Shown: piece after piece, positions 3,001 to 29,599 of the stretch
Numbering within the stretch: the stretch's first letter is position 1
How the letters are laid out: each line of letters begins with the position of its first letter
Assembly: GCF_000003815.2 (NCBI RefSeq)
Contig: NC_049980.1
Span: forward strand, 12,731,075-12,795,074
Reading direction: 5' to 3'
Origin: Branchiostoma floridae
Taxonomy: Eukaryota; Chordata; Leptocardii; Amphioxiformes; Branchiostomatidae
DNA: 64,000 bases
Made by a program: the position numbers and the translations under genes
Notes under the pieces: generated by a model
Told to the model about the DNA's origin: nothing
What the model saw: the letters and a program-made list of their open reading frames with translations, nothing else
Database searches by the model: none

Positions 3001-4004
3001 TTATGGGACCAACCCATATGTCTGCTAGCAACAGAAAAAAGACAGCGCGAAGTTCTTTGTGGGGGAAGAATTTCTCACAAAATGAAACTAGTGACCAAAA
3101 CTATGTTGCCGCAGATCGATAAAATACACACACACACTAGAGAACAAAATCGCTCCCGTCTTTTCATACATACCTCTGGCTTACATGTCACTACTGAACA
3201 ATCAAAGGTCCCGCAGAAATGCAATACGTGTTTACACAAGCCAAAAGCAGATATTTACATAGCATCGACATTGTTCAGTACAGGCTTGAATAAGCCATAC
3301 TTGTATAGGGTATAGTCACAGATATAGGCCCAGTGCTATTCACGTACAAAACCCCACGGGGCTTAAAGGTATTCTGGTTAGCAGTTACTGTGTTAGGTAC
3401 TCGTACACCGGTGCACGACGGAAAAGGTTTCCTTGTTTATTGTGCCACTAGAATCGCCTTTCCTTATTAGTAACTTTTTGGTCATAAAAGTATCTTCGTT
3501 TTTGCTTGTTTGTTTATTTTGATGCCTTTTCCATTATTTGGTCGTCCCTCTATTTTAGCGCCTGTCACTCATAGCCAACCATAGCCTCCCGACTTTCTCA
3601 GCAGACCATGGTTGGGAACAATGTCACCCGTGGGTAGAGGTTGGTTGGGGAGGTTGCCTACTAGTCTGTGCTAATCGACTATAAAATACTAGTGATTTTG
3701 ACTAAAAGGAAGTCGGAAAAATATTCCGCTGAAATGCGAGCAGAGGAGCAACCGGGAGCTAGTACAGGAATCAGGATGGATTCCAGGCTACTCCCAACCC
3801 AGGGTCTGTTGGGGAGTGGTCGTGAGGGAAGCTGTGGAACGGTCCTGTATGTATGACAGGGGCTCACACATGCATGTATACTTCAAGCCTTGCAACGTTC
3901 CAATCAAAGATTCCGATGTAGATAAGATTTGGGAAGAATAGGAAAGAAAAAGCCACAAGCCCATTCTCCTTAACCCAGTTGTCAGTAAAATCTAGTATTC
4001 TATA
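1..4004. other. No gene recognised; intergenic
   Basis: I see no conserved coding exon on either strand in this stretch; the open frames are short and of random composition. An AAACATGGCGG stretch near 549 followed by a GAG/GTAAG donor-like site near 610 could be a non-coding first exon, because YY1-like ATGGCGG sites sit at many animal transcription starts. The ATG there runs into a stop after four codons, so it is not a coding start. Nothing ties it to a downstream gene. Confidence 0.5.
2897..2952. repeat. 14-bp minisatellite (GTGTGTTTGTATAT)n
   Basis: About four consecutive copies of GTGTGTTTGTATAT are directly visible. The last copy carries small changes. Confidence 0.85.
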
Positions 4005-4387
4005 TGGAGAATTAATGTGATAGCAACCTCTTTATCACATTAATTCTCCAAAGAGAGATCCAGGATTCTTATATGGAGAATTAATGTGATAGCAACCCCT
4101 TTATCACATTAATTCTCCATAGAGATATCCAGGATTCTTCTACTGGAGAATTAATGTGATAGCAACCCCTTTATAACATTAATTCTCCAAAGAGAGATCC
4201 AGGATTCTTATATGGAGAATTAATGTGATAGCAACCCCTTTATCACATTAATTCTCCATAGAGATATCCAGGATTCTTCTACTGGAGAATTAATGTGATA
4301 GCAACCCCTTTATAACATTAATTCTCCAAAGAGAGATCCAGGATTCTTATATGGAGAATTAATGTGATAGCAACCCCTTTATCACAT
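4005..4387. repeat. Palindromic tandem array, left arm (six 69-bp units)
   Basis: Six units start near 4005, 4074, 4144, 4213, 4282 and 4352. Each contains a hairpin: TGGAGAATTAATGTGATA, a 10-base loop (GCAACCCCTT or close), then the reverse complement of the first arm. Units are joined by a spacer of about 23 bases containing ATCCAGGATTCTT. Two spacer versions alternate, so the higher-order period is about 138 bp. The loop and spacer here are the reverse complement of those in the array at 5650-6545, so the two arrays form a large inverted repeat around about 1.25 kb. Confidence 0.92.
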
Positions 4388-4875: not shown

Positions 4876-5110
4876 TACCCTGGGAGCCAGACAGAAACGG
4901 GTAGCTAGCGAGATTTGTTCGCGAGTTTTGTTCAGCCCGCCGACCTCACATTAGCGCTCCGGGGAGTTTCAGCCCGGAGGAGTTATCGCTACCCTCTTCC
5001 TAATCGGGCTTAAACTCCCCGGGGCGCTAATAGGAGCTCGGCGGGCCTAATTGTCTTGGGCTACCAAATAACTGTCCTAGCCTGCCCGATCTCGGATGGC
5101 CCCCAGGGTA
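4876..5110. mobile_element. hAT-type MITE, 235 bp
   Basis: The element begins TACCCTGGGAGCCA and ends with a sequence whose reverse complement is TACCCTGGGGGCCAT, giving imperfect terminal inverted repeats. It is flanked by the direct 8-bp duplication CCACGGCC (4868-4875 and 5111-5118). The interior folds back on itself (arms around ATTAGCGCTCCGGGGAGTTT and its complement). There is no coding capacity. Eight-base duplications and TA-starting ends are typical of hAT elements. It appears to have landed inside the head of the SINE-like sequence that resumes at 5111. Confidence 0.8.
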
Positions 5111-5589: not shown

Positions 5590-6000
5590 TGACGGTAACC
5601 ACATGCTGATGCGAACAGGCCTTTATCACAACTTTGTCAAATTAATTCACCAGTAGGAGAACCGTGGATCTCTATTTGGAGAAATAATGTGATAAGGGGG
5701 TTGCTATCACATTAATTTCTCCAGTAAGAATCGTGGATCTCTTTNNNNNNNNNNNNNNNNNNNNNNNNNNNNNNNNNNNNNNNNNNNNNNNNNNNNNNNN
5801 NNNNNNNNNNNNNNNNNNNNNNNNNNNNNNNNNNNNNNNNNNNNGTAATGACGGTAACCACATGCTGATGCGAACAGGCCTTTATCACAACTTTGTCAAA
5901 TTAATTCACCAGTAGGAGAACCGTGGATCTCTATTTGGAGAAATAATGTGATAAGGGGGTTGCTATCACATTAATTCTCCAGTAAAGATTTCTGGATCTT
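5590..6000. repeat. Direct duplication flanking an assembly gap
   Basis: About 140 bases before the gap (from about 5590) recur almost unchanged directly after it (from 5845). Both copies contain ACCACATGCTGATGCGAACA and the same first hairpin unit of the right array. The likely cause is an unmerged haplotype or tandem-repeat assembly problem rather than a biological duplication. Confidence 0.8.
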
Positions 6001-6545
6001 TCTATGGAGAATTAATGTGATAAGGGGGTTGCTATCACATTAATTCTCCATATAAGAATCGTGGATCTCTCAATGGAGAATTAATGTGATAAAGGGGTTG
6101 CTATCACATTAATTCTCCATATAGAATACTAGATATCTGTATGGAGAATTAATGTGATAAGGGGGTTGCTATCACATTAATTTTCCAGTAGAAGAATCGT
6201 GGATCTCTCTATGGAGAATTAATGTGATAAGGGGGTTGCTATCACATTAATTCTCCATATAAGAATCGTGGATCTCTTTATGGAGAATTAATGTGATAAG
6301 GGGGTTGCTATCACATTAATTTTCCAGTAGAAGAATCGTGGATCTCTCTATGGAGAATTAATGTGATAAGGGGGTTGCTATCACATTAATTCTCCAGTAG
6401 AAGATTTCTTGATCTCTCTATGGAGAATTAATGTGATAAGGGGGTTGCTATCACATTAATTCTCCAGTAGAAGATTCCTGGATGTCTCTATAGAGAATCA
6501 ATGTGATAACGGGGTTGCTATCACATTAATTCTTCAGAAGAAGGT
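5650..6545. repeat. Palindromic tandem array, right arm (about ten 69-bp units)
   Basis: Same palindromic unit as at 4005-4387 but in opposite orientation: arm TGGAGAATTAATGTGATA, loop AGGGGGTTGC, then the reverse complement of the arm. The spacer contains AGAATCGTGGATCTCT. Units recur about every 69 bases from 5935 to about 6535, with one or two more before the N run. The unit next to the interior and the last unit near 6480-6535 are the most diverged. Confidence 0.92.
5745..5844. other. Assembly gap (100 N)
   Basis: A run of exactly 100 N inside the right palindrome array; such a round size is usually a placeholder of unknown true length. Confidence 0.99.
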
Positions 6546-7839
6546 TGAAAATCCTTTGGCGAAAAAATGTGACAAAGTTTTTAGTTATCGCTATCACATA
6601 TTTTGTAATTATCACGCTTTTCATGAGAAATACTTTTTTGAGCTAAAAGAATGAGATAAATAGCTTCAACTTTCCGAAGCCACTAACCTGTTGCCCTAAT
6701 CAATGCAGAACATACATATTTTATACCGCAAGAATAATTCCCAGTGACGTAATCCCTCTGTAATTCCGTAATCCGGCATCATACCGACGTCAATAGCAGC
6801 TTGACGACCACAACCACCCCCGGTCATGGGCCGTGGGTGGAATATGTCGAAAACAGCTGACATTTCAGCTCACCATCACACATCGATATCTCCTCGGACC
6901 TACTCGCGTGTCGGTAACTTCAAAACTAGTCACACAGCTGCTCACTCCATTGTAACAATTATACAGTTCCGACGTTAAAAGCGTACTATTTTACATGGTC
7001 GTGGATACACATTCTTTTACAGTACATGCATCACAATATACACTGCTTTGTTGTTAGAAAATCTCTTCGTACATTCTTCGAATATTTTTACTGTCGTACG
7101 GAAGAATTAAATAGAGTTCATTTTATCCTGTGTAACAGTAAAATCGCCCACACGCTCCTTTTAGCTATAGCAGGGTGGTTCTACTAGCTATAGTAGCAAT
7201 ACGCCCCCACAACAGGTGGTTGCAGTAGAGTCGCTGAATGGCGACATCTAGCGACATTTGTTCTCAGTGCAATAATAATGCGCTACCGCTCTTCAGGTAG
7301 CGATGTTCAAAACTTGTCAGCCGATACCTCTGTGGGTATATCGTCGTCACATGAATCGTATATAACTTGTTATAATCAGATAAAGATATCTTTCCATGTG
7401 CACAATATCTTACCAAAACTGACAACAAGTCACTTATAGCGAACTTGTTTGGCACTTTTAAAACCGATGCCTCGACACTGACATACTGTAGGCAAATTAG
7501 CAACCCATTATCAATACCTCACCATGTACGAAACTACAAAATAGTCAATGTTCATCATATGTACGGTATTCATTGTTGTATTGATTAATCCTCCTCCACT
7601 TGCTTTCCAGAATAACATGAGAAATGTGATGTCAAAGATTCGTACCGACACCACGTGACCACCACCATGTCGTGCTGTGGAGGTGGCGAGGTACACGGAG
7701 ACAACAGGGTCAAACCGTTCAAGGTGAGAGGGGATTCGTTTGTATGGGGCGAAAGGAAGTGAGCTGATACTAGTAGTCAAGAAGAATATGACGTCATAAG
7801 ATCGGTCGTAGGCTCTAGTGGCTAACTCCATTTTCATGT
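6546..7839. other. No gene recognised
   Basis: AT-rich sequence with only short open frames. I see no conserved exon, RNA gene or clear repeat besides the ragged end of the palindrome array. Confidence 0.4.
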
Positions 7840-7948
7840 GCCTCGATAGCTCAGTTGGGAGAGCGTTAGACTGAAGTCCCGGAAGCCGGCATACTGGCTT
7901 GACAAATTGGAGATCTAAAGGTCCCTGGTTCAATCCCGGGTCGAGGCA
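7840..7948 (+). tRNA. tRNA-Phe(GAA)-like gene with a 36-base insert at the intron site
   Basis: A full cloverleaf can be drawn. Acceptor stem GCCTCGA (7840-7846) pairs with TCGAGGC (7941-7947), with discriminator A at 7948. D stem GCTC/GAGC is at 7849-7852 and 7861-7864. Anticodon stem TTAGA/TCTAA is at 7866-7870 and 7914-7918. T arm CCTGG-TTCAATC-CCGGG is at 7924-7940. The anticodon loop reads CTGAAG, then an insert at 7877-7912, then A, so the spliced loop is CTGAAGA with anticodon GAA (Phe) and a spliced length of 73. The insert lies between positions 37 and 38, the canonical nuclear tRNA intron site, and holds an AGCC/GGCT hairpin. Phe tRNA genes of animals normally lack introns. The acceptor stem also differs from the usual animal tRNA-Phe, so this may be an unusual active gene or a decayed or SINE-related copy. 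No clear TTTT terminator immediately follows, though T runs occur within 20 bases. Confidence 0.75.
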
Positions 7949-15500: not shown

Positions 15501-18500
15501 TTTCAGACCACCATTGCTACCATATTGTTCGGCGCATATTGGGTCGTCATCTTCCTCTACATCTACACCGCAGGTTAGTTTCTTACCTTAGTAATTGATT
15601 GATCAATTGATTGACTCTCGGGCAAAAAAATTCTTCGACATTCGAATTCAATCTTTATGTACCGTGAAGGAAACCCGAATTTTGGAACTTTGGAATTTTG
15701 AAAGTCTTATAATGAAGTGGACTTGGGTTGTATATGTACATGTACGCACATGTATGCGATTCGGAACGCTTTGAATATATAGTAATATAAGTTTGTGTAA
15801 TCTGTATTTTGTTGGGCCATTGAAGCTTACTATTAAGTTATTCTTGTTGCCTTCGCGCAGGGACCCCTGTTGTCCAGAGTAATGGATACGTCACATTCCA
15901 AACTGATTCCTTGCTGGAGGTAAGAATATTTCATTCGTGCGTCCGTTAATATAGTACTTACAGTTGAGGTGTTGTTGTCGTTGAGTGCATCGTTTTAAGA
16001 AAGCAGTTGGTATCATCGAGATTTCCTTGTTTGACATATTGCTCCCCCCTCCCCCTAGAAACTGGTGTGGTATCACGTGTTCGGTGGGCTGTGGATGCTC
16101 CAGTTTCTGATTGGCTGTCAGCACGTGACGATCGCCGGCGCCGTGGCCACGTGGTTCTTCACCAGGTGAAACATTTCTCAAATGCATTTTGTAAAGTGAT
16201 ATCTCTTGTGTTCAAACTAATAGAGGAACTACGCTTTAAAAGACTACGATCAGAATGTGTAATTGATACGTTGTTTTACGAACAAGTTTATTCTTGATTC
16301 CAGGAACAAGAAGAAAATGCAGTCCCCAATAAGCAAGTCCATGGGGCGGTTGATCAGGTGAGAACAATGTGACTCACTTATCAAAAGTTGTTATGATTTG
16401 AGAAATACTGTTGTAGTAATTTCGAGAAGTAACGCCATGTTTTCGCTACGTTCTTGTTATAAGAGCCTGCCAACGTTAGATGATACATTCGAATATGGTG
16501 CCTGTATATACATGTATTTGTACTTTAAATTTGTGCATGACCTGTAGCGTCTCACAATATTGGTTTTCTTTTCACAGATATCATCTCGGCTCAGTCGCTT
16601 TCGGAGCCATGATCATTGCACTTGTCCAGCTGGCCAGAATCATACTAGCTTACATACAAAACAGGTAAGGGCCCGGTCACATGAGTTCTGCGATGGTCGT
16701 ACAGCTGAATCTGTTTCCCTCATAAAATGGTCCAAACGTTAACATTGCCCATTGATGTGACAGATGCATTGAGTATGCAGATGTAATTACATGTGTATAG
16801 TTTTATCGTTTCTGGACTATATGACACATGCTACTGGCATTACAGCGAAGTTTAGAAAGATTACCTTCTTCAATGAGGCAAGGGTTTACATGTCACACTT
16901 AGTGTAATGCCTGTTCGATAGCCTATATGTATATGTGCTATTTAACCTTTGTTGCCATCAATGCACACACACTCTGACCAGATATGAACTGTTGTTCCCA
17001 GACTTAAGGGGCGTGCAGGTGAAGTCGCGGACTTCTGCCTGAGGTGCCTGGCCTGTTGCCTCTGGTGTTTCGAGAAGGTCCTGAAGTTCATCAACAGGAA
17101 CGCCTACATCATGATAGGTGGGTCTCTATGTGGTCGCAACTGGGCAACTATTTAACATTGACCGCTAGGAACATATGTTCTTATATGCTACATTTGGGTT
17201 GTTATAGACTGTATCATAAGTAGCAAGTTAGTTTTAAGTTTTGCAGGAAATATACTTTCTAACTTGACAACGTAACGCTTTCCCAGTGTATGCTTATGGG
17301 CATGGGTGGGCGGGAAACACTTTCAGTACCGAGGACAGACCAATGAGCTCACAATGGTACCCTGTATAACCCTACCCTTTCTTGCAGCCATCTACGGGTA
17401 TAACTTCTGTAAGTCCGCCCAGCGTGCCTTCTCCGTCCTGGTCTCTAATGCCCTGCGGGTCGCCGCCCTCAACTCTATCGGGGACTTCTGTCTCTTCCTG
17501 GGGAAGGTTGCCGTGGTCGCCGCGACGGTCGTCGTCGGGATCGAGCTACTTCAGGTGACCTTTCATCATTAGTATCAGTAGCTGAGCGAATTTCGTAGAT
17601 AAAGCACGATCTTATTACGTTTTGCTTTTGCTGTCTTTAATATCACACTTTTCCATCTTGCATCCTATTCCAATTATGAAAATCAATCGGTAATTGTAAT
17701 GCACATGTAACGCAAAGGTCTTTCTTACAGTCTGGCAGATAAAATCTCAAGTAAAGCTGGCATTCTAGAACTAAAGACAACCTGTTGTTATCAGCATCAT
17801 GTGTTCTTTTTTCTGTTTATCATTAAATTTAATCCGACAAAGCCCACAGTACTAATAAGTCCAACATCGAAAACAATACACATGTATGTATGGTTTCGTA
17901 CTGTTCTGTACAACAGTAGTTTAAGATAACCTTTGATAATATTTTGTGTACTCGTGTGTACTCATTATCTGTTTGTATCTCTCCGTTAGAACCGTGCAGA
18001 CCTGACGTACTACCCGGTACCCATCGTACTGGGTGCCATCTGTGCCTTTCTCATTGCCCATTGCTTCTTCACTGTGTATGAGGTAAGAGATAGACTCTGT
18101 GCAATAAACTATTATGTATTATCTACACTAGCACTATTGTAGAATCATGCAAGATTTTAGGAGACAGAGTATTTTAGGACTGTACCTGCTATGTCTTTAA
18201 ATTGAAATGCGATATTTCAGAAAAAAAGCATTTTCGAAAGCTAAAGCTACAAACACAAATTGATCATATGTGAAATGTGTTCGTTGCATACAGGGTAAAA
18301 CTCTTTGTCCCGCTCTCCACAGATGGCGATAGATACGATCTTCCTGTGCTTCTGTGAGGATGAGGAGAGGAACGACGGTGTGACCAAACCGTACTACAGT
18401 AGTGTGGGGCTACGGGACTATCTACAGAAACAGGAGAGGGCCATCCGCGCCAAACAAAGCAAGAAACAACAAAAACAACAACAGCAACAACAGGGATACG

Positions 18501-21272: not shown

Positions 21273-24200
21273 TCATACAGAGTCATCTGGAGAATGGAAA
21301 AAAATCATACACAGTAAGCTAGAACTGATGCAAGCATACATTTCATTTTCTTAACAAAATTGCAGGACAGAGACACTGGCAGTCTGCCATCAAGCCAACA
21401 TCTATGTGCAAGCACATCTAAGCCTCAGGAGATGGGGAACAACAGACATAAACCAGAAAGGCAGTCAGTGTGTTTAGTAACAGGGAAACAAAGATTGTTT
21501 ACAATAATGGAAAATTATATAGTCAAAGTAGAAAACACATTTTCTATAATTTTATATGATATCATACCAACTCACCATGATACCACCATTTTGTCTTCTT
21601 AGGATTTTTGCTACATGTTCGCACATAAAAGTTGTTGTCTGGTGGTCGTTTCTGTCAAAGAGATCAATAATGTCAAAGATACTACGATTGATCTTGATTC
21701 CAAACATGTAACATTGAAAAGTAAGTGTAACATGATGTTAACTACATCATGAAGAGACAGATACAAGATACATCATTCTATGCGAGTCACCAATAGAGAT
21801 CAGTGTGCTTTGTAGGTACTAATTACATGTATATGTTTTGCAAGAATGACAACCTGCAATAAAAGCATCATTGTCCCACACAACATACTAATTAAAGAAC
21901 CCTTATCCAATTATTAAAATGCCAGACCCCAGCCCTAATACATCTTCAGAGTACTTAGCAGCTGAGATCTAGAGACTTGTATGATGATTGATAATAAAAC
22001 CTAGCTAGTATGTGCCTATCTCCTCATATTATAAATCTACATCATGATTTCTTCCTTTCATAACAGAGTACAATTACTTAAGAGTCCCATTCTCAGTAAT
22101 GGTGCTGACTTTGCTGGTACCATTTCCTCGCCAAAGGAACTTGCTACAATAACCACCCCTTATCCATCTAGTTATTGACACGTATCGCATTTGTGCAAAG
22201 GTTGACATGACGTGTGATTATCACCTCTTCAAGATGTCAATACAAAGACCAGACTGTAAAATTGGATCCACTCACACCAGGAAGGACCCCCACTAGTAGT
22301 ACTCTTGCCTACTTTATATCTGAAAGGATGTGCCTAACCAAAGCTAGGTACACATTTCTACATATATGAGTCAGGTGAGGAAATAGTGTAAAGTATACAG
22401 CATGTACACTGGGACCTGCAAGGGGTTTAAATTTGAACCCATTACCATGGATCCAATAACCCGATCTACAGGACCACATGCCACCTTTTGTATTTTGTAC
22501 CACTGCAGCTATCGTGATAATAACTACCATGATGATACAACCTTTCTGTCCAAATGGGAATTCCAAGTTCCAACTCACCTTTTCCTTACAACTGCTAAGC
22601 ATGCTAATGATTGACAGGCACACAGACTGGACCGACAGAGCGGGAGACCAGTCCTCCGTCAGGATGGACAGACAGATGTGTCCGTTACTGTACACGTGGG
22701 GGTGGACCGGGATGTTTGGACCTGTAAACACAACCTGTAACACAACAACACAAAACAGTGACTTCAAGTCAAATGTCATTGACAGAGTCACATGTTACAA
22801 TACTACACTGTTTGTCGTGAGATTTTACGTAATTACTTTTGACATACATAATCTTGCATGTAGGTTTTTCCAAATTACATGTAAAATTTTTGCCAACAAC
22901 CACATTTGAACAATAAATAGTATGATCCCTGCTGACGAGTAGTGAAAAATTATGATACATGTACATGTAAATGAACAGGAAGCCCATAAAGATATATTTT
23001 GTCCATGCCATATGCTATCAAAATCAAAACATCCCATCATAATACCACTGCTGTAACTTTTGAAATTGCTCCAAAACAGTGTGGTCAAAAACCCATTGTT
23101 TGGCTGATTTGCTTTCTGAAGGATACACTTATGTGAGTGGATGATGTTACGACCATGAACCAATTGTTTACGTACCTGCGGAGAGTCAAAGGGATATCTT
23201 GGACCAAACTTAAAAAGCAGCTGAAACTTTTCTCCTTCAAACAGTGTGCCTGGTGCTCCGTCCATGTCTACTTGCCACCTAGAAAAATCAGAGCAAGACA
23301 AGTAGCACACATGTTATCACATCATTTTTAACTACAAGTCCGAATTAGACATCAATGTACCAGTACTATATCTGACTAGACACAAGCACTAACAAGGAAC
23401 TTGTTGACTCAATTTGTTACTAAAATCTTATTTTTACCAAACATATGAACAATTTTACACTAGTAAAAGATGAAAACATTGTATAGGCAATGATATCACC
23501 AACACCTTTCATCTGAGATCCTTTTTACAGCACACTGAAGAAGGAGGAATTCCTTGTCAAATTGTTCAGGTACAGGTACAGGCACAGGTATACTAATATA
23601 CTATAGTACAGGTCTTGGTCTGCAACTGAATGCCTGTTCCAGGAGTTGTGCTTGATGTTTTGTTTTGGTATGAAACACTAATAAAAATATACAAGTACAA
23701 TTACATGTGTAATGTATTGTATTGTATCTCCAGGAGTGTGTAGCCGTAGTTGCGGATTTATTTCAGTTTCTTTATTTAAATAACTGTTGCATTGTGGAAC
23801 CCTTCATTAGGGCTGGGGTGGCTGCTGCTGGAGCACAATGTTGTTGTTTACTCCATTGCTGGAGGGGTGATCTATAACCTTTGAAGGGAGGTGTTCTAGA
23901 ACCGACAGTTACCGGTGTCATCTTCAAATAAAAGTTCAGTTTTCATTCTTGTTGTCTTGAAGTTCAGACATCTGTCTCCGTCTGGTCTTACTGTAACACA
24001 TGTATACTTTGTACTTACGTGCTGAGAGATTTGGTAACACTTGCTTCATCCACCCTGACTCCAGGAGGCGGGTCCTTCTGTAGGGCCAGCAACTCCTTCT
24101 GTAGGCGTTTCTACAGAAACAACCATGTGCAAATGAATGGGGAAACAGTAGTCTTCAAGCAAACCCTACGGTGCCTTAGAGATAGTATCAAAGCTGGCCA

Positions 24201-26146: not shown

Positions 26147-29051
26147 CTAATTGAAAGTAAGCCATTTTCTTGGGTTGTCGATGAGGATCTTGTCGATGTC
26201 ATCCTGGGAGATCCCTTTCCTCAGCATCATGGGTACAACATTGAGGAAGATGTGGGAGTAGCCATGTCCGCCATAGTGCATCTAAACGGAAGGGAACTTA
26301 ATTAAATAAGTTGAAAACAGCACAAGAAAATGCACGTGGAACTGAAAATCAACGTTTTTATGAAAGATTGAAGAGAAGTTTTTTTTTTTTTTTTACCAGA
26401 GATGAGCTACTCACACTATGATGCAGAAGTACACTGTGTACTGAGAGTAACCTACCAGCCTATGTTTGGTGTCCATGTCATGAGAGATGACCACCTGGTC
26501 AGCGTACCCCTCTTGCAACACCTGTTGAATCATGTTGATCCTCGAGGCATCGTTCGGCATGTCTGTCGCCACTGACTGCCATGGACTACCGGACACCTCC
26601 AGCCCAAAGAAGTCCCATTCCAGGTAACATCCCAATGTAGCAAACTCCAGAAACTCTTCAGGACTGAAGAAGGTTCCTGTAAGGTTTGAAACAGTTGGCA
26701 GTACATTAAGTGTGTGTGTAACGGTTATCAGCATAAGTAAAACAACACCCAGCCATGGCTTGAACTTACTGTCAAGGTGGGACATGACCGTCGCCCTCAC
26801 GTCACCGCCTGCCTCCTGCAGTACCCTGATGATCTCGGCAGGAGCGTCAGTGTGCCTTCCGGGATGGATGATTACTAGGACTGGGTATCGGTACAGTGTA
26901 CCGGTACAAAACCGGTTTTTCTTATTGGACCGGTCCAGAAAAACCGGACCTGAAAAAGTTAGGTGGACCGGATGTTGGACCGATTAGAAAATTAACATAT
27001 TATTTGATCAGGCATTCACACGTTTTGGCGCTTGCAGTTGGAAGAAAATGACAAGAGTGAAGTAGAGTAGTGTTTATAGTAATTTCTACCAAGGTTTACA
27101 GTCAATCGTACAGGTGCAGTTAGCGTTGTAGGATTTTAAAACGCCAGTGTAAGTCTAATACTTCACCAAACAGATTTCTTTGTAGTAAAATGCACCATTG
27201 GTATGATTCATACTGAATCAGGTCCAGGTTCAGGTCCGGACCTGGACCTGATCCTCTGGACCTGAACCGGACCTGGACCTGAATTTTCTGTACCGGTACC
27301 CAGCCCTAATGATTACCGGACAGCCTGTGTCACTCTGGGCTGTGGCTGACGCTTTCAGAACTTTCTTTTCGTTGTCTGGAAATGAAGTTTTAAAAGGCGT
27401 TTAGATATAGCTGATACTAGCATACGAAATTATGCATGATATGACATGACCAGAGATAGTGATTATGAAAATATCAGACGTCCGAGCGAACTTGTATCTT
27501 ACAGCACTCTGACTTAATCTCCAAGCAGATTACTCTGACAGATGCCCACCTGTCAGGGGCCAAGAACAGCCAACTTCCCCAATCACACCACACCGTACAT
27601 CAGTCCCATCAGCCCCCTCGGTGATGTCATGGACCATGGTAGCCACCAGGTCTTCCTGGGTAAGGCTGTTCATGTTTGATGGATGGGTGCTGTCTATGTA
27701 ATAACCTTGAGTACAGAAAATAGGTGAAGAAATTACTCCACTATCAGTCCATAACAGATTCACAAGTATATTTTCTAAATAGTTTGCTTTAATTTATTTG
27801 ATACAGTTTGCTGTTAATATGTACTAGCATGGGCTATGTCAAGTGAATAGATGCAGGTTGCCTAAACAGAGTCGGCTACTTTCAACGAGTCGCATCCTTG
27901 ATTATTGTACCTTTTCACATACCTGTGCCACAAATGATGTTCACTCCAGATTCCATTGATATCTTCCGTAGTTTCCCAACATCTCTACTCAGGCCAAGAG
28001 AGGTGCATTCAACGATAGAGCATCCTCCATTCTTTTGATAGAATTTCAGCTCTTCCACCATGTGATCTTCTTCGCCATGTAGGGTGATATTGGCTGAAAT
28101 GCTATACCTGTAGATGGTTGGAAGATAAGCAGTTGATAACTTATGGAAGGGTTGAAAAGCATATGAAGTCCATGATCAAGAGAACAACGTTGATCTTGAA
28201 TATATCATTTAATAATCTTTAAGCAGATGTAAGGATCCGGCTTGTTCTTAGTGTTTTCACTTGTTTGGAGGAGGCGAACCGTTGAAGAATACAAGAGAAT
28301 GAGCCGAATCCTTACATCTGCTTGGAGATATGTTTTTACACGTCAATTAATTGGACAGAAACTTTCATATAAATATGAATGATCACCAAATTGGAGCGTA
28401 TTCTATATTTTATTGTCTGATGACAGATATCGATGTCTAATGTCATGACAAGAATTTTCATGTCCATCGCCAGTACGTATACTGTAGAACGGTACTTACG
28501 GATACTGTCTGATGAAACCCAAGTTCTCCATGATGAGCGACATTGTCCCCATGTGAGGGGCATGTTTGGGTGGCGGGGCTTGGAATATGGAGAAATCCGC
28601 CACGAGGTGCTCGTGAGTTATGGTCTTACCGAGGTTCTCGGGTTCAATCGGGCCTAGTACTGTACAGATGAGAGACCAATTATAGTCATGCCTGTCTGTA
28701 AAATAGCCTACTGATAATAGAATGTTGAAACCCCAGTTGTCTTGACAATAACTACATACGTTAAGTACGTGCATGTAAAACGTTGTAGGTTCAATGGATT
28801 TTGGTCAAAATTTGTTGTATATTTTTACTGAACAATTATCTCAACCTTTACCATTAACTATAGGTATGCTCTGTGGCTTACTACTCACCGTCCCTATTCT
28901 TGAGGTAAGAGGCAATTTAACGTTTAGGTTTTTGTGTGCAATTATCCCTGGTCTCCTCTTTCCCAACAGAAACATCGTGATTACCTACAACCTAGAAATA
29001 AATTTTTTGTTGCAAGTAATATAAGTCACCTGTTTGGACTCTCCCATTCAT
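26147..29051 (-). CDS. PTER: Phosphotriesterase-related protein; exon 5 split by a MITE
   Basis: Zinc-dependent amidohydrolase-fold enzyme; vertebrate PTER hydrolyses N-acetyltaurine. Exons in transcript order: 29030-29051, 28500-28659, 27923-28107, 27550-27705, exon 5 in two parts (27309-27375 and 26770-26867), 26456-26676, 26147-26281. Exon 1 encodes MNGRVQT, matching the GKVQTVLG start of vertebrate PTER. All metal ligands expected for the family are present: HxH at 23 and 25 (THEHL), Glu166 (GEVGCSW), His198 (IIHPGR), His227 (MSHLD), Asp296 (SHDMD). The end is PRKWLTFN. Counting one copy of the 8-base target duplication, the coding length is 347 codons, against 349 in human. A 433-bp hAT-type MITE interrupts the codons for Val195-Ile197, just before ligand His198, so this allele as assembled should not make normal protein unless the insert is removed from RNA. 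Simple use of the GT in the first duplication and the AG at the element end would give an immediate stop (CCG TAA). Confidence 0.93.
26876..27308. mobile_element. hAT-type MITE inside PTER exon 5, 433 bp
   Basis: The ends are TAGGACTGGGTATCGGTAC and, reverse-complemented at the other end, TAGGGCTGGGTACCGGTAC. The 8-base direct duplication ATGATTAC flanks it exactly (26868-26875 and 27309-27316). The subterminal sequence is rich in ACCGG/CCGGT and GGTCCAGGTCC-type repeats on both sides. There is no coding capacity. The exact duplication suggests a fairly recent insertion, perhaps polymorphic. Confidence 0.93.
27518..27533. repeat. Solo MITE end near PTER exon 4
   Basis: TCTCCAAGCAGATTAC matches the terminal motif of the fold-back MITE group in this region but has no partner end nearby. 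It lies 17 bases from the exon 4 donor. Confidence 0.5.
28216..28328. mobile_element. Fold-back MITE in PTER intron 2
   Basis: Left arm TCTTTAAGCAGATGTAAGGA continues TCCGGCT. The right arm, reverse-complemented, reads TCTCCAAGCAGATGTAAGGA then TTCGGCT. Same ends as the elements at 24152, 25370 and 29375 with unrelated interior. Confidence 0.78.
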
Positions 29052-29374
29052 AGTGTGCGTCAGGGCCTTTCCATAGGACGTAAATGAGTGTGGGGAAGAC
29101 AAATGTTGCCACCAAGGACGAGGGAAGACAGCACTGGTACTGTTGAGGTTGAACTACCAGCAGAATACACGTGACGAGTTTAGTTGATGGTGTTGCAGAG
29201 ACCGCGATACGTTCTGTACCACAGTGTTGGTTACTTTGTGCTGCCATAGAATAATAATAAATGTCTAGAGTCCTGATACCGCCTACTCAGGGGTCCAAAG
29301 TCTTGTGTTTTGTACACATCGTCATTTATCATTAACTTGCAGGTATATAGCACCCCTCCCATGACCTGTTATGG

Positions 29375-29588
29375 TACTCTCCAAGCAGAGTTTAGGCTCC
29401 GGTTGTTTTTTAACGTTTTTTTAGTCGTTTTTATCGGGCTTTCTATTTTTTTTTATTATATCTTGCTGTGTCAAAACCTAACAAAAGGCCGGACACAACA
29501 AAAAAAAATTACAAAATAGAAAGCCCGATAAAAACGACTAAAAAAACGTTAAAAAAACAGCCGGAGCCTAACCTCTGCTTGGAGAGTA
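29375..29588. mobile_element. Fold-back MITE upstream of PTER, 9-bp target duplication
   Basis: Near-perfect hairpin of 214 bp with ends TACTCTCCAAGCAGAG and CTCTGCTTGGAGAGTA. The arms run through GCTCCGG and the AACGTTTTTTTAGTCGTTTT stretch into GGGCTTTCTATTTT. CTGTTATGG flanks both sides (29366-29374 and 29589-29597). Nine-base duplications are typical of Mutator-like elements, which would assign the whole CTCCAAGCAGA-end group if it holds for the others. Confidence 0.85.
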
Positions 29589-29599
29589 CTGTTATGGCA

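What the first reader, a model, noticed from the sequence alone, without database searches (positions are those of the whole stretch)
26868..27316. A hAT-type MITE splits a conserved coding exon of PTER next to a metal ligand
The 433-bp element with perfect 8-bp duplications (ATGATTAC) sits inside exon 5. Coding sequence on both sides is conserved and the frame is continuous once one duplication copy is counted (347 codons, human 349). The insertion interrupts the codons just before zinc ligand His198. All other ligands are intact, so the gene was under selection until recently. It is either a null allele in the sequenced animal, or the insert is removed from RNA in a non-obvious way. The simple intron reading (GT of the first duplication, AG at the element end) would give a stop, which argues against an introner-like origin.
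Basis: partly seen in the sequence, partly recalled or inferred. Interest (0 to 1): 0.72.

Follow-up and report, generated by a model that had tools for sequence, protein, structure and literature searches.

The report
Young jumping-DNA insertion breaks lancelet enzyme gene
In this genome, apparently a lancelet's, a short mobile DNA element has fairly recently landed inside a protein-coding exon of an otherwise healthy enzyme gene (a relative of PTER) and should knock out that copy; this is an ordinary kind of event, made interesting by how clean it is and by a testable chance that the RNA is repaired.

Summary
Observation confirmed. A 433-bp element (26876-27308) with 21-bp terminal inverted repeats (19/21) and perfect 8-bp duplications splits coding exon 5 of a 7-exon, 347-codon PTER-like gene (- strand), three codons before metal ligand His198. 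All 40 scored copies in the same 513-Mb genome match at 96-100% (100% is the window copy itself); 37 of 40 have identical 8-bp duplications, of hAT type. Read through, the frame stops inside the element. The gene has no other defect, dN/dS about 0.1 against its nearest paralogue, and no acceleration against three paralogues, so it was under selection until recently. The copy has 3-4 private changes: point estimates 1.2-1.6 (0.2-4.0) million generations, below mean lancelet allele divergence (3.4), though the interval reaches it. Most likely a segregating null allele. Six other PTER genes have this exon unbroken; no second allele was found in the assembly. New: a 3' splice-site sequence inside the element (its AG in 40 of 40 copies) gives, with exon 4, an open 352-codon frame keeping all ligands but replacing a conserved segment; and the RNA is predicted to fold into a hairpin pairing the element's ends, as RNA-level removal (SOS splicing) might need. 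RNA data are lacking.

The parts
26876..27308 (.). 433-bp non-autonomous hAT-type element (MITE)
   Evidence: TIRs 19/21, 8-bp TSD; 39 other scored copies at 96-98% in G000
26868..26875 (.). target-site duplication ATGATTAC, first copy on + strand
27309..27316 (.). target-site duplication ATGATTAC, second copy
29030..29051 (-). PTER-like exon 1 (start codon, 22 nt)
   Evidence: followed by a GT donor
28500..28659 (-). PTER-like exon 2 (ligands H23, H25)
27923..28107 (-). PTER-like exon 3
27550..27705 (-). PTER-like exon 4 (ligand E166)
26770..27375 (-). PTER-like exon 5, 165 nt of host coding sequence split by the element (ligands H198, H227)
   Evidence: (lengths only)
26456..26676 (-). PTER-like exon 6 (ligand D296)
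26147..26281 (-). PTER-like exon 7, stop codon
26949..26969 (-). 3' splice-site-like sequence inside the element (CAG at 26952-26950, first exonic base 26949); exon 4 joined here stays open for 352 codons
   Evidence: score 5.45 against 1.8-5.0 for the 6 real acceptors; 61 of 7135 AGs of the window score as high; AG with its T-rich tract in 40 of 40 copies read

Best explanation
A non-autonomous hAT-type element of a large lancelet family of very similar copies inserted, probably within the last few million generations, into exon 5 of one of about seven PTER genes. In this haplotype the transcript runs into an in-frame stop (codon 223) inside the element, 460 nt before the next exon junction, so it is expected to be degraded or to give a truncated protein lacking three of the six metal ligands: a loss-of-function allele. 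Because the gene was under strong purifying selection and the point estimate of the insert's age is below the mean allele divergence of B. floridae, the allele is most likely still segregating. Shown: insertion, frame, stop, otherwise intact gene, constraint, element family, paralogues. Inferred: RNA decay, loss of function, polymorphism, and the species.
For: Element and duplication exact; 40 of 40 scored copies 96-100%, the 100% being the window copy itself, 3319 first-look candidates of which only 40 were scored; duplications 8/8 in 37 of 40, T at position 2 in 27 of 37 and A at position 7 in 28 of 37 (without the window copy P about 2e-7 and 3e-8 if base frequency is 0.3). Stop at codon 223, 460 nt upstream of the exon 5/6 junction. 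dN 0.14, dS 1.41 (NG86) against the nearest paralogue, no excess of changes in 9 of 9 relative-rate comparisons with the three C8 paralogues, no stop in the empty-site frame. 3 private substitutions of 433 (40-copy set) or 4 (30-copy set): 1.2 (0.2-3.4) and 1.6 (0.4-4.0) million generations at the published 5.89e-9 rate, against 3.4 million for mean allele coalescence (PMC12862219 abstract and passages). A second gene, a 944-codon LRR gene, is cut by a copy of the same family.
Against: No RNA, no reads of other individuals, no second haplotype. The insert could be fixed in the species: the upper ends of both age intervals (3.4 and 4.0 million generations) reach the mean coalescence time, and the intact-frame bound is 2% divergence only if an indel is assumed for every ten substitutions, 4.6-5.1% with none. 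At sites invariant in the other six genes the window gene departs at 9 of 160, second highest of seven. An element splice site could restore an open frame and hairpin-directed RNA removal is not excluded. dS above 1.4 is near saturation.
Confidence: 0.72

Rival explanations
1. The mRNA is repaired: the terminal inverted repeats pair in the transcript and the element is cut out of the RNA and the ends ligated (SOS splicing, RTCB-dependent), so the allele is not null.
For: The element RNA is predicted to fold with its two ends paired, -155.5 kcal/mol, z -8.3, 0 of 100 shuffles as stable; the end pairing is kept in the whole exon, z -4.4, 20 shuffles. SOS splicing of DNA transposons from animal mRNAs is reported (review PMC13247085, passages; the original Nature 2026 paper was not held). 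A CAAP1-family match (29.2 bits, cut-off 25) exists in this genome; that CAAP1 and AKAP17A take part, and that pairing of the repeats is the trigger, is recalled.
Against: No RNA evidence. Any element with much internal complementarity would fold; six paralogues make tolerance of a null unsurprising. The CAAP1 match covers 29 of 63 positions and has a stop inside the matched stretch. The RTCB search did not complete. Frame-true joining would be needed.
Confidence: 0.1
2. The spliceosome uses the element's own 3' splice site: exon 4 joins to base 26949 and makes a 352-residue protein in which 20 residues (175-194) are replaced by 25 from the element, all ligands kept.
For: Acceptor scores 5.45, above all 6 real acceptors of the gene; frame open to the stop codon. 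0.62% of 5000 shuffled elements give an equally good open site; 10.8% an equally good site in any frame; 5.6% an open site at least as good as the weakest real one. The AG is in 40 of 40 copies. hAT Ds1 elements of maize supply splice sites (PMC5432752, passages).
Against: Found after testing many splice combinations. The replaced segment is conserved: 12 of 20 identical to PDB 9efa against 166 of 336 overall, so the product is probably inactive. The native acceptor remains intact upstream. 61 of 7135 AGs in the window score as high.
Confidence: 0.08
3. Exon 5 (165 nt of host sequence, 606 with insert, both multiples of three) is skipped, giving an in-frame protein short of 55 residues.
For: Exon 4 joined to exon 6 stays open to the stop.
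Against: Removes two metal ligands, H198 and H227; such a product would be expected to be inactive. No RNA.
Confidence: 0.05
4. Assembly artefact: the element was misplaced into PTER.
For: High-copy repeats are prone to misassembly (general knowledge).
Against: An exact 8-bp duplication of the local PTER sequence and clean element ends are not expected of a random join; the window copy differs from the other 39 copies read. No reads were available.
Confidence: 0.03

Closest known systems
hAT-superfamily MITEs (Mar and BuT2-related MITEs of Drosophila, PMC3517528 and PMC3942097, passages seen)
   Same: Short, non-coding, terminal repeats of the usual length, 8-bp duplications, many similar copies
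   Different: Duplications fit the pattern nTnnnnAn given for Hermes (PMC10368747 passage), not the Buster pattern nnnTAnnn of Mar; the autonomous partner was not looked for
Maize Ds1 (about 400-bp hAT element, PMC3260210 abstract in the listing; supplies splice donors and acceptors, PMC5432752 passages)
   Same: Similar size and superfamily; brings splice-site sequences that could alter the host mRNA
   Different: Ds1 sites lie within 35 bp of the termini; here the best acceptor lies 74 bp from the element end and no GT-AG pair restores the exact protein; use in RNA not shown
SOS splicing substrates (DNA transposons removed from animal mRNA; review PMC13247085 passages)
   Same: DNA transposon in an exon whose ends are predicted to pair in RNA
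   Different: No excision shown here; the reported work was in other animals (recalled: worm and human cells)
PTER / phosphotriesterase-related protein (N-acetyltaurine hydrolase; PMC11374699 passages and section 6)
   Same: PF02126 311.4 bits, all six metal ligands, equivalents of R204 and R233
   Different: D at mouse H300 and S at mouse Y263; the D is shared with the three C8 paralogues, so the substrate may differ

Membership tests
hAT superfamily | 8-bp target-site duplication | tested here: met
   window copy 8/8; 37 of 40 copies 8/8, exceptions L012, L037, L038
hAT superfamily | target preference nTnnnnAn (Hermes type) | tested here: met
   T2 27 of 37, A7 28 of 37; ATGATTAC itself fits
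hAT superfamily | short terminal inverted repeats (5-27 bp, PMC3517528 passage) | tested here: met
   21 bp, 19/21 in window copy; 20/21 in the 30-copy consensus
hAT superfamily | mobilised by a hAT transposase with the same ends | not tested
   no autonomous relative was searched for
MITE | short, no coding capacity | tested here: met
   433 bp; its 61-aa frame of 27120-27305 has no Pfam match; no other frame of the element was scanned
MITE | many near-identical copies | tested here: met
   40 of 40 scored at 96-100% (window copy included), 3319 first-look candidates
Introner (intron-making transposon) | element plus one duplication removed as a GT-AG intron restoring the frame | tested here: not met
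   GT of duplication to AG at element end gives a stop; none of 506 GT-AG pairs restores the exact protein
SOS-splicing substrate | terminal repeats pair in the mRNA (requirement recalled) | tested here: met
   predicted fold z -8.3, kept in exon context; prediction only
SOS-splicing substrate | element is excised from RNA | not testable with these tools
   no RNA data
PTER / PTE family (PF02126) | family profile and six metal ligands | tested here: met
   311.4 bits; H23 H25 E166 H198 H227 D296
PTER / PTE family (PF02126) | substrate residues of mouse N-acetyltaurine hydrolase | tested here: inconclusive
   R201 and R230 kept; H300 is D, Y263 is S; mapping to mouse numbers uses the 9efa alignment and the human sequence as recalled

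The most novel reading that the evidence does not exclude
The insert-bearing allele is not null: the terminal-repeat hairpin directs removal of the element from the PTER mRNA (SOS splicing) in a lancelet, so that this MITE family can sit in coding exons at little cost; the LRR gene at C11 would be a second natural substrate.
Probability: 0.08. Interest if true: 0.75.

Novelty: new member of a known kind. Interest (0 to 1): 0.4.

Why it matters
It is a clean, roughly dated, natural insertion predicted to abolish a conserved metabolic gene, with a second one in an LRR gene, made by one MITE family of very similar copies in a basal chordate. These are ready natural test cases for whether RNA-level transposon removal works outside the model animals, and a reminder that a reference genome can carry probable null alleles of conserved genes that annotation might model as odd introns.

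Tried and rejected
Introner reading: rejected, the frame breaks. Coding capacity of the element: its 61-aa frame has no Pfam match. Tandem PTER duplicate inside the window: tblastn finds only this gene. Empty haplotig of this gene in the assembly: none among 46 exon-level matches. Relaxed constraint before insertion: not supported by relative rates; D298, which first looked like decay, is shared with the C8 paralogues, though the window gene's 9 departures at otherwise invariant sites are second highest of seven. Rfam gave one tRNA match in the window; ARAGORN, with its bacterial setting, none. Paper searches: amphioxus + MITE + hAT (all 5 listed) and four of branchiostoma/amphioxus/transposable elements/hAT/Repbase (20 of 80 listed) show no title or abstract start on this element; phosphotriesterase-related/Branchiostoma/amphioxus (8 of 1,212 listed) shows no title on PTER. 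I therefore do not claim that this insertion or family is unreported.

Errors of mine: one search used the wrong frame offset for its read-through, exon-skip and splice results, which are void and were redone; its lengths stand. One search did not turn the loci of the minus strand, so its consensus, divergences and motif count are void; one search is the corrected 30-copy run and the 40-copy run. In one search the first acceptor pattern matched 25 of 30 copies (scores 5.45-6.39); a looser pattern matched 40 of 40, so five of the first 30 were not scored.

Full report
Place. The window is G000:C2:12731075-12795074 of a 513,431,437-base, 431-contig genome. I take it for Branchiostoma floridae: the contigs seen include chromosome-sized ones numbered up to C19, and 19 chromosomal pseudomolecules are given for B. 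lanceolatum in the listing of PMC11907188; the B. floridae assembly size is recalled. The species was not tested by sequence, so the use of B. floridae mutation rate and diversity below is conditional on it.

Gene. On the minus strand lies a complete 7-exon gene of 347 codons with start, stop and GT-AG at all six introns once one duplication copy is counted. It matches PF02126 with 311.4 bits and PDB entry 9efa, 'Phosphotriesterase-related protein', with 352.1 bits (both with the 339 residues from exon 2 on), 166 of 336 aligned residues identical. The six metal ligands named for mouse PTER (H26, H28, E169, H201, H230, D298; PMC13311154 passage) correspond to H23, H25, E166, H198, H227, D296, all present.

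Insertion. 26876-27308 is a 433-bp element flanked by ATGATTAC on both sides. The duplication begins at the codon after Pro194, three residues before His198. Read through, the frame ends at codon 223 inside the element, 460 nt before the exon 5/6 junction, so nonsense-mediated decay is expected (inference).

Family. The genome search gives 40 scored matches at 96-100%, the 100% being the window copy, out of 3319 first-look candidates. Of the 40 copies read, 37 have identical 8-bp duplications; among these T at position 2 in 27 and A at position 7 in 28, the pattern nTnnnnAn given for Hermes (PMC10368747 passage). The three exceptions are L012, L037 and L038; L012 shows a 7-bp repeat by eye. 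The consensus ends are TAGGGCTGGGTACCGGTACAG and TAGGGCTGGGTATCGGTACAG, 20 of 21 alike. The superfamily rests on ends and duplications; no transposase partner was sought. The 40 are the best matches to the window copy, not a random sample of the family.

Age. The window copy has 8 differences from the 30-copy consensus, 4 of them private; in the 40-copy set 3 are private, against a mean of 2.5 per copy. That is 1.2 (0.2-3.4) to 1.6 (0.4-4.0) million generations at 5.89e-9 (rate and pi from PMC12862219 abstract and passages); changes inherited from an unsampled source copy would make it younger. Mean coalescence of two alleles at pi 0.0397 is 3.4 million generations, so the point estimates are younger but the intervals reach it. 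Independently, the absence of any other lesion bounds neutral decay at about 2% divergence (95%) if one indel arises per ten substitutions, but only at 4.6-5.1% with no indels (the indel ratio is an assumption). Both fit a polymorphic insertion; neither shows that it is one.

Selection before insertion. In all six the exon-5 segment is one unbroken match (in both C2 genes it starts one residue into the exon). One extra partial exon-5 hit in the C12 gene was set aside. The window gene is 73-75% identical to the C8 genes and 62-65% to the others; dN/dS is 0.14/1.41 against C8_1 (NG86), with dS near saturation; YN00 gave 0.142/1.505 and failed for two of seven pairs. In 9 relative-rate comparisons over 322 common sites the window gene never had more unique changes than the C8 gene; chi-square exceeded 3.84 in two of nine, both with the C8 gene faster. 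At 160 sites invariant in the other six it departs at 9; the other genes' counts run 1, 2, 4, 5, 6 and 14 of 152-165. So the gene looks like a normal, constrained paralogue.

Can the RNA be saved? Among 506 GT-AG pairs within the exon (spacing 45 or more), 47 leave an open frame; none restores the exact protein, and the two best combine the strong acceptor of the element with weak donors. It scores above the gene's own acceptors, and its AG is in 40 of 40 copies; 0.62% of 5000 shuffled elements do as well in an open frame, 10.8% in any frame, and 61 of 7135 AGs in the window score as high. It replaces a conserved segment, 12 of 20 identical to 9efa, so I expect an inactive product. Exon skipping is also in frame but removes two ligands.

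Hairpin. The sense RNA of the element is predicted to fold with its ends paired, -155.5 kcal/mol, z -8.3, 0 of 100 shuffles as stable; in the whole exon the end pairing stays, z -4.4 with 20 shuffles. This is what removal by SOS splicing would need, as I recall that system. I saw only review passages on it (PMC13247085); the original was not held. A CAAP1-family match in the genome is over its curated cut-off (29.2 against 25 bits) but covers 29 of 63 positions and has a stop inside the matched stretch; none of the 14 control genomes rings. The RTCB search did not complete.

Not alone. Joining the flanks of the 40 loci to see the empty sites, one other copy (L005) lies in a clear host gene: a single 944-codon frame with leucine-rich repeats (Pfam LRR_8 5.9e-72 on its first 607 residues), broken at residue 111 and stopped 58 codons further. 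Thus 2 of 40 copies sit in recognised host coding sequence. A third (L011) lies at residue 9 of a 126-residue frame whose residues 42-104 match Lectin_C (6.2e-10), so the site may be exon or intron; L017 sits in a mobile-element-like frame (by eye). Only 4 spanning frames were scanned against Pfam, so the count is a lower bound. If coding sequence is about a tenth of the genome (recalled), 2 of 40 is no strong depletion, as expected of young insertions.

Context. Presence-absence variation affects over a thousand genes in lancelets (PMC12373286 abstract and passages), so a segregating null of one of seven PTER genes would be unremarkable. Verdict: observation right, ordinary mechanism, clean and testable example.

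Noticed in passing
L005 / L031 (G000:C11:16359453-16359885): A copy of the same MITE interrupts a single-exon 944-codon leucine-rich-repeat gene at residue 111; read-through stops 58 codons on.
   Followed up: partly
L017: A copy of the same MITE lies in a 466-residue open frame that looks like a helicase/endonuclease of a mobile element (by eye, not scanned).
   Followed up: no
L011: A copy of the same MITE lies just upstream of a C-type lectin domain (Lectin_C, 6.2e-10) in an open frame; exon or intron not settled.
   Followed up: no
window 26471-26473 (residue D298): Mouse substrate residue H300 is Asp here and in the three C8 paralogues, and Tyr, His or Ala in the C2 and C12 ones: the substrate range of these PTER genes may have diverged.
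   Followed up: partly
L054-L055 (C8 cluster): One C8 PTER copy has a stop at the position of residue 343, near the C-terminus; another has Thr at the Arg201 substrate position.
   Followed up: no
L057 2187-2240: Partial second exon-5-like match (44%) just before the real exon 5 of the C12 PTER gene, perhaps an old exon duplication.
   Followed up: no
window 29374-29589: Palindromic element (83% self-complementary over about 216 bp) some 320 bp upstream of PTER exon 1.
   Followed up: no
window 3984-4387 and 5590-6577: Tandem satellite with units of about 70 bp, present in opposite orientations in the two blocks.
   Followed up: no
window 7840-7948 +: Rfam tRNA match, 55.9 bits over 109 nt (perhaps intron-containing); ARAGORN with its bacterial setting finds none.
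   Followed up: no
window 4876-5110: Second window hit outside the satellites with an 8-bp duplication (CCACGGCC) and 15/21 terminal repeats, possibly an older element.
   Followed up: no
window 22309-23310 (-) and 17276-17569 (+): Neighbouring exons match ubiquitin-conjugating enzyme (UQ_con) and choline transporter (Choline_transpo) families in Pfam.
   Followed up: no
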